A stretch of 64,000 nucleotides of DNA from Elusimicrobia bacterium HGW-Elusimicrobia-1 (GTDB lineage: Bacteria > Elusimicrobiota > Endomicrobiia > PHAN01): the NCBI GenBank assembly GCA_002841695.1, contig PHAN01000003.1, positions 62,001 to 126,000 of the forward strand, read 5' to 3'. Position numbers and translations under genes: made by a program. Shown piece after piece: positions 1 to 36,716 of the stretch. Under the pieces are notes generated by a model, which had not been told where the DNA came from, did not search any database, and worked only from the letters and a program-made list of their open reading frames with translations. Positions within the stretch are counted from its first letter, which is position 1. Each line of letters opens with the position of its first letter.

Positions 1-824
1 CCAAAATGCGCTGCGTGGTGCTCATCCCCGACGGAGCCATCGCTCTGGGCAAACTTTCGCAGGCGCTGGTTCACGGCGCGGAGGTCTTCGCCGTAAGCGG
101 TAACTTCGACGAAGCGCTCAACATAGTGCGGGAACTCTCGGAAAAATATCCGCTCACGCTGGTCAATTCCGTCAATCCTTACCGCATCGAGGGGCAGAAG
201 ACGGCCGCCTTCGAGATAATCGAGACGCTCGGCCGCGCGCCGGACTTTCACTTTATACCGGTGGGCAACGCCGGAAACATCACCGCTTACTGGAAGGGCT
301 ACAAAGAATACGCCGACGGGAAATTCTTCATAGCCGCCGCTTCTGCGCCCTATCCCCTATCCACTATCCACTATCCACTGCCTCATATGATGGGCTTTCA
401 GGCCGAAGGCGCCGCGCCCATCGTAAGGGGCGCGCCGGTAGCCAAACCTGAGACCGTCGCGACCGCCATAAGAATAGGAAACCCCGCCTCGTGGCGGCAG
501 GCCGTCGAGGCCAGAGACGAGTCGCTCGGCGCGATAGACATCGTGACCGACGACGAAATTCTGGCCGCCTACAAACTGCTGGCTCGGTCGGAAGGCGTGT
601 TTTGCGAACCCGCCTCCGCCGCATCCGTGGCCGGCCTGATCAAATACAAAAAAATCATTTCCGATTCCGGCGGCTCCGACGGCAAAGATTCCCCGGTCGC
701 CGTCTGCACCCTTACCGGCCATGGTCTTAAGGACCCCGACTGCGCCGTCAAGAATTCCTCCCGTCCAATGTCGGTTCCCTGCGACGCGGCGAAAATCGTT
801 TCTCTTTTGGGGATAAAATCATAG
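1..824 (+). CDS. thrC: Threonine synthase, C-terminal part (gene enters from upstream)
   Basis: PLP enzyme that converts O-phospho-L-homoserine to threonine. The frame is open at the left edge, so the N-terminal part with the PLP-binding lysine lies outside the window; residues are counted here from the ATG at 6. The phosphate-binding turn [18 protein letters not shown] (about 85-102) and [13 protein letters not shown] are family hallmarks. Between them, residues about 112-126 ([15 protein letters not shown]) are encoded by bases 339-383, which match one arm of the palindromic repeat seen at 10551, 13298 and 63950; relatives have only a short linker here. The enzyme is probably still functional because the frame stays open. 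An AT-rich DUF3800 gene begins 6 bases after the stop. Confidence 0.93.
339..380 (+). repeat. In-frame copy of the AGTGG/CCACT palindromic repeat inside thrC
   Basis: The stretch starts with GCTTCT and continues as a run of CTATCCA/CCACTAT units ending in CCACTG. It matches the right half of the palindrome at 13298-13380, which also runs from GCTTCT through CACTATCCACTA to CCACTG. It adds a whole number of codons and contains no stop. Confidence 0.75.
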
Positions 825-830
825 TTAATC

Positions 831-1499
831 GTGAATAACATGGGGGGACATCTTTATATTTTTCTCGATGAAGGCGGCAACCTTGATTTTTCCGCGCGGG
901 GCACTAAATATTTTGTTATGACCGCCATAGTCAAGACAAGACCTTTTGATGCTTACAAGGAACTCGCCGAAATAAAATATGACTTGATAGAATCCGGGCT
1001 GGATTTGGAGTATTTTCATGCCTCCGAAGACAGGCAGATAGTCAGAGATGTTGTATTCAGAGTGATTAAAAAGCACTTGGACGTGATTTTGGATAGTTTG
1101 GTAGTAGAAAAAAGAAAGGTCGATCCCGTATTGCGGGCGGAGGAAAGATTTTTCCCTGAAATGCTGGGTTATCTGTTAAAATATGTATTGGGTTGTTGCG
1201 AATTATCGGGATATGATGAGATTTTAATATTTACCGACGCCATTCCCTTAAAGAGAAAAAGGGAAGCCATAGAGAAAGCCATCAAAAAAGTGCTTAAAAG
1301 AGTTGTGCCGCCGTTTACCAAGTACAGAATTTTCCACCATGCCTCAAAGTCCAGTTATGATTTACAAATAGCGGACTATTGCAATTGGTCGATTTTTCGC
1401 AAATGGGAAAGCGGCGACGCAAGGTCTTACGATATTATATCTTCTGCGGTAAGAAGCGAATATGACATATTCCGTGCAGGCGGGCGTTATTACTACTAA
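831..1499 (+). CDS. DUF3800 family protein (copy A)
   Basis: A 222-residue protein of the DUF3800 family, whose function is unsettled. The N-terminus has IFLDEGGNLDF, a variant of the family motif DESGD; further conserved acidic positions are in ILIFTDA (about 130) and LQIADYCNWSIFRKWE near the C-terminus. This spacing of aspartates would suit an RNase H-like nuclease fold, which is inference. The start is GTG 831 or ATG 840; no clear Shine-Dalgarno sequence is seen. Base composition is clearly more AT-rich than thrC and the genes downstream, pointing to acquisition. It is a paralogue of 35949-36581, sharing the FRK(W/Y)E C-terminal block, and like that copy is followed by a convergent structured-RNA locus. 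Confidence 0.85.
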   Translation: MNNMGGHLYIFLDEGGNLDFSARGTKYFVMTAIVKTRPFDAYKELAEIKYDLIESGLDLEYFHASEDRQIVRDVVFRVIKKHLDVILDSLVVEKRKVDPVLRAEERFFPEMLGYLLKYVLGCCELSGYDEILIFTDAIPLKRKREAIEKAIKKVLKRVVPPFTKYRIFHHASKSSYDLQIADYCNWSIFRKWESGDARSYDIISSAVRSEYDIFRAGGRYYY

Positions 1500-1569
1500 A
1501 AATTAAGACCGCCCCGACTACCCTTGCGGGAGAGCCCCATGGGCTCTTGTCATCGGAGCGGTACCTTTT
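1498..1569 (-). ncRNA. Putative structured RNA A, convergent with DUF3800 gene A
   Basis: Read on the minus strand, this segment starts about 7 bases after a strong promoter. It folds into a 10-bp closing stem (ACCGCTCCGA, 1562-1553, with TCGGGGCGGT, 1517-1508, one G:U-type difference) that encloses a hairpin AGAGCCC/GGGCTCT (1547-1531) and a small hairpin CCC-GCAA-GGG with a GNRA loop (1530-1521). It ends in a U-rich tract (AATTTTTAG) that abuts the DUF3800 stop codon. No open frame is present. Structured RNA motifs next to DUF3800 genes have been described as a class from comparative genomics; membership of this one is not tested. Confidence 0.55.
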
Positions 1570-1575
1570 GACGAT

Positions 1576-1604
1576 AGTGTATAAAATTGGCAGAGGATTG
1601 TCAA
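1576..1604 (-). promoter_or_regulatory. Sigma70-type promoter for putative RNA A
   Basis: On the minus strand TTGACA (1604-1599) and TACACT (1581-1576) are separated by 17 bases. The expected start point, near 1569, falls just ahead of the RNA's closing stem. The -35 region, the -10 region and the CGTCAA just after the -10 are shared with the promoter at 36687-36716. Confidence 0.65.
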
Positions 1605-1619
1605 GTTGTGTATCAAAAA

Positions 1620-35948: not shown

Positions 35949-36581
35949 ATGTATATTTTTTTGGATGAATCCGGCGATTTGGGTTTTGATTTTAGCAAGG
36001 CCCATACAACAAGCCATTTGGTAATAACCGTATTGGTTGCGCGGGACAAAACGGGATTTGAAAGAGCTGTTAAAAGAACACTGAAGAATAAAGTAAATCG
36101 CCGTAGAAACAGCGTTAACGAGATAAAGGGTTCGGATACCGCGTTCGAAGTAAAAAAATATTTCTATAACACGCTCTTAAAATATGAAACTGATTTTGAG
36201 ATTTACGCGGTGATATTGAATAAGAGGCGAGTTTACAAGTATTTATCTTCGGAGCCGGAGATGCTTTATGCCTTTCTTTCAAAGTTTCTTTTGGAAAAAT
36301 GCCCCTTCGAGCAAGCTATAGACAGGATAATATTAACGATAGATAAAAGAAGCCGCAAACAGGGAGTGGAAAGTTTTAACAAATATCTCCTGAGTTATTT
36401 GAAAGCGCAATTGCCTAAGATAGACATATATCATAATCATTCGTACGCGAGCAAAGGTCTGCAAGCGGTTGATTTGTTCTGTTGGGGGGTTTTCAGAAAG
36501 TATGAACGGAAAGATGCGGAATGGTACGATATGTATAAAGATAAAATCAGATTCGAGACCATGTATCTACCACAGAAATAA
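35949..36581 (+). CDS. DUF3800 family protein (copy B)
   Basis: 210 residues. Canonical N-terminus MYIFLDESGDLGFDF, a middle aspartate in IILTIDKRSRKQG, and C-terminal SKGLQAVDLFCWGVFRKYE. These three acidic motifs are the conserved ones of DUF3800 and are compatible with an RNase H-like active site (inference). GGGAG lies 11-15 bases before ATG 35949. Markedly AT-rich and lysine-rich compared with recO and glyQ. Paralogue of 831-1499 and, like it, followed by a convergent promoter and structured RNA. The module interrupts the recO-glyQ neighbourhood. Confidence 0.92.
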   Translation: MYIFLDESGDLGFDFSKAHTTSHLVITVLVARDKTGFERAVKRTLKNKVNRRRNSVNEIKGSDTAFEVKKYFYNTLLKYETDFEIYAVILNKRRVYKYLSSEPEMLYAFLSKFLLEKCPFEQAIDRIILTIDKRSRKQGVESFNKYLLSYLKAQLPKIDIYHNHSYASKGLQAVDLFCWGVFRKYERKDAEWYDMYKDKIRFETMYLPQK

Positions 36582-36686: not shown

Positions 36687-36716
36687 AGTATATAAGATTG
36701 CTTGCCGGCTTGTCAA
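36687..36716 (-). promoter_or_regulatory. Sigma70-type promoter for putative RNA B
   Basis: Minus strand TTGACA (36716-36711), 18 bases, TATACT (36692-36687), followed by GCGTCAAG and then the first helix of the RNA at 36678. Nearly the same arrangement as at 1576-1604. Confidence 0.7.

What the first reader, a model, noticed from the sequence alone, without database searches (positions are those of the whole stretch)
831..1605. DUF3800 gene A faces a strong promoter and a predicted small structured RNA on the opposite strand
Seen: the AT-rich DUF3800 gene ends at 1499. On the minus strand a near-consensus promoter (TTGACA 1604-1599, 17-base spacer, TACACT 1581-1576) points back toward it. 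Between promoter and stop codon lies about 70 nt with a 10-bp closing stem, two inner hairpins (one with a GCAA tetraloop) and a terminal U-run against the stop codon. Established: structured RNA motifs near DUF3800 genes have been reported as a class from comparative genomics, and their function is unknown. Inference: protein and RNA form one mobile or defence-like unit, with the RNA as guide, antitoxin-like partner or substrate.
Basis: partly seen in the sequence, partly recalled or inferred. Interest (0 to 1): 0.8.

Follow-up and report, generated by a model that had tools for sequence, protein, structure and literature searches.

The report
New RNA family paired with nuclease
A tiny gene for an RNase-H-like nuclease (DUF3800) is always followed by its own small folded RNA on the opposite strand, a pair that has spread across at least 14 bacterial phyla, often into anti-phage defence gene clusters, and this RNA is a new family whose most likely job is to hold the nuclease in check.

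Summary
A 62-nt three-way-junction RNA lies on the minus strand right behind the DUF3800 stop codon, with its own promoter and U-tract. In 35 homologous loci 97.3% of paired positions form standard pairs and 15 of 21 pairs show compensatory changes. G-U outnumbers A-C 45:2, so the minus strand is the functional one. No Rfam 15 model matches it. The covariance model finds it beside every intact close relative of this protein that had room for it (43, plus one diverged form), in at least 14 phyla, viral contigs, a Gordonia phage and Roseobacter plasmids. Protein and RNA trees agree. The window's second DUF3800 gene carries a different RNA, Rfam DUF3800-V, in the same layout. A same-genus genome has a precise empty site: the ~0.8-kb insert is just gene, RNA and RNA promoter. 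Half of the scanned loci (13/26) sit beside restriction-modification or other defence genes. The protein folds like RNase HII. A guide role is unlikely: no variable unpaired segment. Best explanation: the RNA is a cognate partner that restrains the DUF3800 nuclease, like type III or AbiF RNA antitoxins. That step is inferred; no toxicity or transcript data exist.

The parts
831..1499 (+). DUF3800 protein A, 222 aa (GTG start 831 or ATG 840), RNase-H-like nuclease fold; invariant D13, G16, F20, K94, Q179, D182, W186
   Evidence: Pfam PF12686 E 6.4e-12; alignment A2; AlphaFold2 pLDDT 93.4, best PDB match RNase HII 1eke E 1.2e-5
1507..1568 (-). structured RNA core AAAGG...GGUC: P1 10 bp, P2 7 bp, P3 3 bp with GCAA loop
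   Evidence: model R1 match 1499-1574 minus, 85.2 bits
1498..1506 (-). U-tract after P1, overlapping the DUF3800 stop codon; probable intrinsic terminator of the RNA
   Evidence: sequence; T fraction 0.57 in the 9 nt after P1 over all loci
1576..1604 (-). sigma-70-type promoter of the RNA (TTGACA 1604-1599, N17, TACACT 1581-1576)
819..1617 (.). inserted unit absent from same-genus genome G001; flanked by a near 6-bp repeat ATAAAA 813-818 / ATCAAA 1612-1617 (empty site has one ATCAAA)
   Evidence: repeat read by eye, suggestive only
35949..36581 (+). DUF3800 protein B, 210 aa, the second unit in the genome
36585..36678 (-). DUF3800-V RNA, the cognate RNA of protein B
   Evidence: Rfam RF02964, 46.4 bits, gathering 37.4
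36687..36716 (-). near-consensus promoter of the DUF3800-V RNA (TTGACA 36716-36711, N18, TATACT 36692-36687)
   Evidence: read by eye

Best explanation
Gene A and the minus-strand RNA are a two-part module: an RNase-H-fold nuclease (DUF3800) and its cognate small structured RNA, made from its own strong promoter and ended at the nuclease's stop codon. The RNA most likely binds the nuclease and keeps it inactive, and the nuclease is released when the cell is attacked (for instance when a neighbouring restriction system is hit). This is a type III-like RNA antitoxin arrangement in a small, horizontally mobile defence unit. Shown by computation: RNA structure, strand, family membership, gene-RNA coupling, precise insertion, defence neighbourhood, fold. 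Inferred: direct binding, inhibition, toxicity and trigger.
For: Covariation: 97.3% of cells paired, 15/21 pairs with double changes, 0/500 shuffles. Strand: G-U 45 vs A-C 2 cells. Promoter at the right place in 23/34 loci vs 5 expected, -10 to AAAGG mostly 5-7 nt in the close group. Coupling: 43 intact genes of the clade have the RNA; of the two others one runs into the contig end and one has a diverged RNA. RNA-first search of 341 genomes finds strong hits only in the 6 with a close protein. Cognate specificity: three RNA types map to three protein clades with the minimum of 2 changes; Mantel r 0.72, p 2e-4. Invariant unpaired residues (AAAGG, the As of GAYAA, UA) suggest a binding partner, not mere antisense. 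L064 has RNA, U-tract, then gene on one strand behind a consensus promoter, the layout of toxIN and of RCd22-abiF. Defence neighbours in 13/26 scanned loci. Precedent: the abiF motif (RF03085) is a proven RNA antitoxin of AbiF by direct binding (PMC12373285). RNAs outlive broken genes (L107, L110, L138, L140, L063), with no intact gene lacking it.
Against: No transcript, binding or toxicity data. An obligate RNA cofactor would give the same coupling. Outliving of the RNA is also expected from its smaller mutational target (62 vs 670 bp). Tandem repeats and pseudoknots typical of type III antitoxins are absent. Half of the loci, the window included, have no defence neighbour. P1 doubling as terminator is unproven.
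Confidence: 0.5

Rival explanations
1. Obligate RNA cofactor: the RNA is a scaffold or activator that the DUF3800 nuclease needs for activity, as an RNP effector, rather than an inhibitor.
For: Same coupling and co-inheritance. DUF3800 accessory nucleases occur in Cas12a2 and type VI-F loci. Other RNase-H-fold nucleases (IscB, TnpB) need an RNA (own knowledge).
Against: No variable guide segment in 35 RNAs. RNA persists where the gene is broken. RNA has its own strong promoter. DUF3800 folds like RNase HII, which needs no RNA cofactor (and own knowledge).
Confidence: 0.25
2. Transposon-like unit: DUF3800 is the recombinase and the hairpin, as RNA or single-stranded DNA, is its recognition end.
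For: Precise empty site and near 6-bp target repeat; spread over 14 phyla; RNase H fold is shared with transposases and RuvC (own knowledge); in L057 two RNAs flank the gene in inverted orientation.
Against: Nearly single copy per genome; no gene-less RNA copies in the window's phylum at strong score; no conserved left end; no terminal inverted repeats; promoter and U-tract point to RNA.
Confidence: 0.1
3. Cis-antisense regulator: the RNA only pairs with the 3' untranslated region of the DUF3800 mRNA, as in type I systems such as RatA/txpA.
For: Convergent layout with the RNA at the gene's 3' end in nearly all loci.
Against: Antisense needs no conserved structure or sequence, yet both are kept across phyla; in L064 the RNA is upstream on the same strand and cannot be antisense to the gene.
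Confidence: 0.08
4. Plain bidirectional terminator between convergent transcripts, with no function as RNA.
For: Stable hairpins and a U-run at the gene end.
Against: G-U 45 vs A-C 2, invariant junction residues, and promoter in place; reverse-strand model scores 9-19 bits vs about 85.
Confidence: 0.02

Closest known systems
DUF3800-V RNA (Rfam RF02964) and the DUF3800 RNA motif group
   Same: Small structured RNA convergent with, and directly behind, a DUF3800 gene; RF02964 is the RNA of copy B in this window and of its relatives.
   Different: The A-type RNA does not match any Rfam model even at E<=5; different junction layout (P1, then P2 and P3 side by side) and sequence; its proteins form a separate clade.
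AbiF / RCd22 (abiF motif RF03085), type III-like RNA antitoxin
   Same: Conserved RNA motif coupled to one defence-protein family, in a prophage; shown to bind and neutralise the protein (PMC12373285).
   Different: Unrelated protein (Abi_2, linked to Cas13 ancestors) and RNA; upstream and co-directional there, convergent here except in L064.
ToxIN / AbiQ type III toxin-antitoxin
   Same: RNA, terminator and nuclease gene; RNA is the predicted inhibitor.
   Different: No repeat array or pseudoknot, different nuclease fold, own promoter on the opposite strand.
PADLOC model DUF3800_VII (PDLC02917)
   Same: Protein A matches it (E 7.6e-7). From memory, this is the DUF3800 effector of type VII retrons, restrained by RT-msDNA.
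   Different: No reverse transcriptase beside the window copy; a structured RNA stands in that place. L047 does sit beside an RT of group UG21.
RNase HII
   Same: Best fold match (1eke, E 1.2e-5, probability 1.00); DE[SAG]G motif resembles its DEAGRG motif (own knowledge).
   Different: About 15% identity, TM 0.46; other catalytic positions differ.

Membership tests
Rfam DUF3800 RNA families | Match to a family covariance model | tested here: not met
   Window RNA and relatives in 13 further loci: no A-type RNA hit at E<=5. Only copy B and the extra RNA in L066 match RF02964.
DUF3800-associated RNA motifs (broad class) | Covarying structure next to DUF3800 genes | tested here: met
DUF3800 protein family PF12686 | Pfam score above curated cut-off | tested here: met
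   46.8 bits vs 21
Type III toxin-antitoxin | RNA antitoxin binds and inhibits the toxin protein | not testable with these tools
   needs biochemistry or a growth assay
Type III toxin-antitoxin | RNA encoded upstream of the toxin gene, separated by a terminator | tested here: not met
   convergent downstream in the window and nearly all loci; met only in L064
Type III toxin-antitoxin | Tandem repeats of the antitoxin unit | tested here: not met
   single unit in the window; two tandem RNAs only in L140
RNA-guided nuclease (OMEGA, CRISPR) | Variable guide segment in the RNA | tested here: not met
   longest unpaired segment inside the core is AAAGGUU, conserved
Insertion sequence | Terminal inverted repeats, multiple copies per genome | tested here: not met
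Insertion sequence | Target-site duplication at an occupied versus empty site | tested here: inconclusive
   near 6-bp repeat with one mismatch, one site, flanks 78-80% identical
Retron type VII | Reverse transcriptase and msr-msd beside the DUF3800 effector | tested here: not met
   window neighbours are a PLP-dependent enzyme and an SNF symporter

The most novel reading that the evidence does not exclude
DUF3800 proteins with their type-specific small RNAs are a very widespread, previously unrecognised class of RNA-restrained RNase-H-fold nucleases. They sit as standby devices inside restriction-modification operons and prophages and fire when the host system or the RNA's supply is disturbed, as PrrC does beside EcoprrI. 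The many DUF3800 RNA motifs would then be orthogonal antitoxins, one per protein clade.
Probability: 0.35. Interest if true: 0.85.

Novelty: new member of a known kind. Interest (0 to 1): 0.62.

Why it matters
RNA motifs beside DUF3800 genes have been catalogued for years without a function. This gives a clean, strongly covarying family with one matching protein clade, a naturally orthogonal pair in one genome (A and B), a precise empty site, a defence-gene context, and culturable carriers (Phaeobacter piscinae P14 plasmid pP14_b, Ruegeria sp. TM1040, Gordonia phage Kenna gene 54). The open question of what DUF3800 RNAs do becomes testable in one co-expression experiment.

Tried and rejected
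Rfam at relaxed E-values for the A RNA: only chance hits such as miRNA models. Empty site for copy B: G001 has a different gene upstream of glyQ, so no conclusion. Weinberg 2017 paper is not held, so its motif drawings could not be compared. NCBIfam gave nothing; PDB sequence search gave nothing. Protein-only scan of viral contigs found nothing, the alignment-based one found 8. Guide RNA rejected: no variable unpaired stretch. RNA-outlives-gene as proof of an antitoxin rejected: the gene is a ten times larger mutational target. The weak R1 hit in G216 (30 bits) is not counted as a member: no A-type protein match in that genome, and its sequence reads as a GC-rich terminator hairpin. Searches failed on wrong input.

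Full report
What is there. Gene 831-1499 (+) encodes a 222-aa DUF3800 protein. The minus strand behind its stop codon folds into a three-way junction: P1 of 10 bp, P2 of 7 bp, P3 of 3 bp with a GCAA loop (-35 kcal/mol, z -3.95). A U-tract overlaps the stop codon and a promoter (TTGACA, 17 nt, TACACT) stands 5' of the RNA. The genome has exactly one other DUF3800 gene, also in the window (35949-36581). It carries an Rfam DUF3800-V RNA in the same convergent place.

It is a real RNA family. A scan of GTDB genomes with the protein brought relatives at 33-63% identity from many phyla and five more from the window's phylum. Nearly all carry the same RNA right behind the gene. In the 35-row alignment the structure is paired in 97.3% of cells (83.7 in shuffles); 15 of 21 pairs have double changes (9.1 in shuffles) and the covariation score is 0.463 vs 0.199, 0/500 each; slid controls collapse. 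G-U pairs are 45 and A-C pairs 2 when read on the minus strand, so the minus strand is the structured one; reverse-strand model scores are 9-19 bits against about 85. G-T wobble also occurs in single-stranded DNA, so this alone does not exclude ssDNA, but the promoter does favour RNA: 23 of 34 loci have a >=9/12 promoter against 5.0 expected, and the commonest distance from the -10 end to AAAGG is 5-7 nt, which puts the 5' end at AAAGG in those loci. No Rfam model matches the A-type RNA at E<=5.

Gene and RNA are inseparable. In a census of held loci all 43 intact genes of the clade that could be judged have the RNA, the window included. Of the two others, L121 ends at the contig end and L118 has a diverged form. 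The script's table lists the window row L004 as lacking the RNA only because its hit was recorded under the name 'window'. A model search of 341 genomes of the phylum gives strong hits only in the six genomes that have a close protein. A search of the 33 source genomes gives mostly one copy each. The clade reaches viral contigs, Gordonia phage Kenna, where the gene lies next to the immunity repressor, and Phaeobacter and Ruegeria plasmids, always with the RNA where enough sequence is held. Protein and RNA distances correlate (Mantel r 0.72, p 2e-4). Three RNA types fall on three protein clades with the minimum of two changes (the third type was assigned by eye). The A clade spans 14 named phyla in 26 rows and needs 15 phylum changes on the tree, where 13 is the least possible. 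With very few rows per phylum this alone is weak, but near neighbours from different phyla (L044 with L047, L053 with L066, L039 with L040) and the presence in plasmids and phages point to horizontal transfer.

It moves as a block. The same-genus genome G001 lacks it. There the upstream PLP-enzyme gene overlaps the symporter gene by ATGA; here about 0.8 kb is inserted. The insert holds only gene, RNA and RNA promoter. A near 6-bp repeat (ATAAAA 813-818, ATCAAA 1612-1617) flanks it, which is suggestive only. No terminal inverted repeats or conserved left end were seen, so an autonomous transposon is not supported.

Where it lives. Of 26 loci whose neighbours were scanned, 13 adjoin restriction or other defence genes: type I HsdS and HsdR (L034), HsdS (L035), HsdR (L037, L038, L009, L010, L043 with a Thoeris-type TIR, L045), a type III-like methylase and ResIII pair (L036), type IIG enzymes (L053, L066), MmeI (L055), and a UG21 reverse transcriptase (L047). 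In L053 and L066 the unit splits homologous type IIG genes at the same point. The window copy has no defence neighbour.

The protein. AlphaFold2 gives pLDDT 93.4. The best solved match is RNase HII (1eke, E 1.2e-5), followed by terminase nuclease domains and, weakly, Argonaute proteins. D13, G16, K94, Q179 and D182 are invariant over 38 diverse members. Median pI of the A clade is 8.9. PADLOC calls it DUF3800_VII, from memory the effector of type VII retrons; a DUF3800 nuclease has also been found in Cas12a2 (V-A2) and type VI-F CRISPR loci.

Mechanism. The unpaired residues AAAGG, the As of GAYAA, and UA are kept across phyla while stems vary by compensation. This fits recognition by a protein, and the cognate clade is the obvious candidate. 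No unpaired stretch is variable, so it is not a guide. In L064 the RNA precedes the gene on the same strand, behind a promoter that is identical to consensus as read by eye and before a U-tract. That excludes cis-antisense as the general rule and matches the RCd22-abiF layout, where a conserved structured RNA motif beside a defence gene is a proven antitoxin (PMC12373285). RNA-first searching in a Nitrospira family shows RNAs left beside broken or missing genes; target size alone can explain this. I therefore favour an RNA that restrains a nuclease (0.5), then an RNA cofactor (0.25), transposon end (0.1) and antisense (0.08).

Limits. No expression data; MAG loci may hold frameshifts; Rfam is the only motif library tested; the defence-neighbour count has no formal background set. 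Steps shown: structure, strand, coupling, insertion, fold. Steps inferred: binding, inhibition, toxicity, trigger.

Noticed in passing
L066 4675-4865: A-type unit and a DUF3800-V RNA lie side by side, but this genome has no V-type DUF3800 gene except a fragment elsewhere: an orphan V RNA inside a split type IIG gene.
   Followed up: partly
L011 122-3616: Four DUF3800-V RNAs spaced about 1.0-1.4 kb apart, each behind a DUF3800 match (G143 contig C62): a tandem array of gene-RNA units.
   Followed up: no
L014, L019, L020, L023, L027 behind the DUF3800 gene: A third RNA type (GUAA..CC..GGGGNUCCGNANGGUUCCUC) with no Rfam match, beside its own protein clade.
   Followed up: partly
L057 107-183: A second A-type RNA (70 bits) upstream of the gene, in inverted orientation to the downstream one.
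   Followed up: no
L108 2092-2162: A diverged A-type RNA lacking a clear P3 and with its own terminator hairpin, with no DUF3800 gene within the 4.5 kb read, in a genome whose A gene is on another contig.
   Followed up: no
L140 3079-3258: Two tandem A-type RNAs behind an interrupted DUF3800 gene.
   Followed up: partly
L062 4671-4713 and L120 3686-3729: RNA with the same junction core (GAUAAG...UAG) but a longer or remodelled P1, beside diverged A-clade proteins; suggests the junction is the functional core.
   Followed up: no
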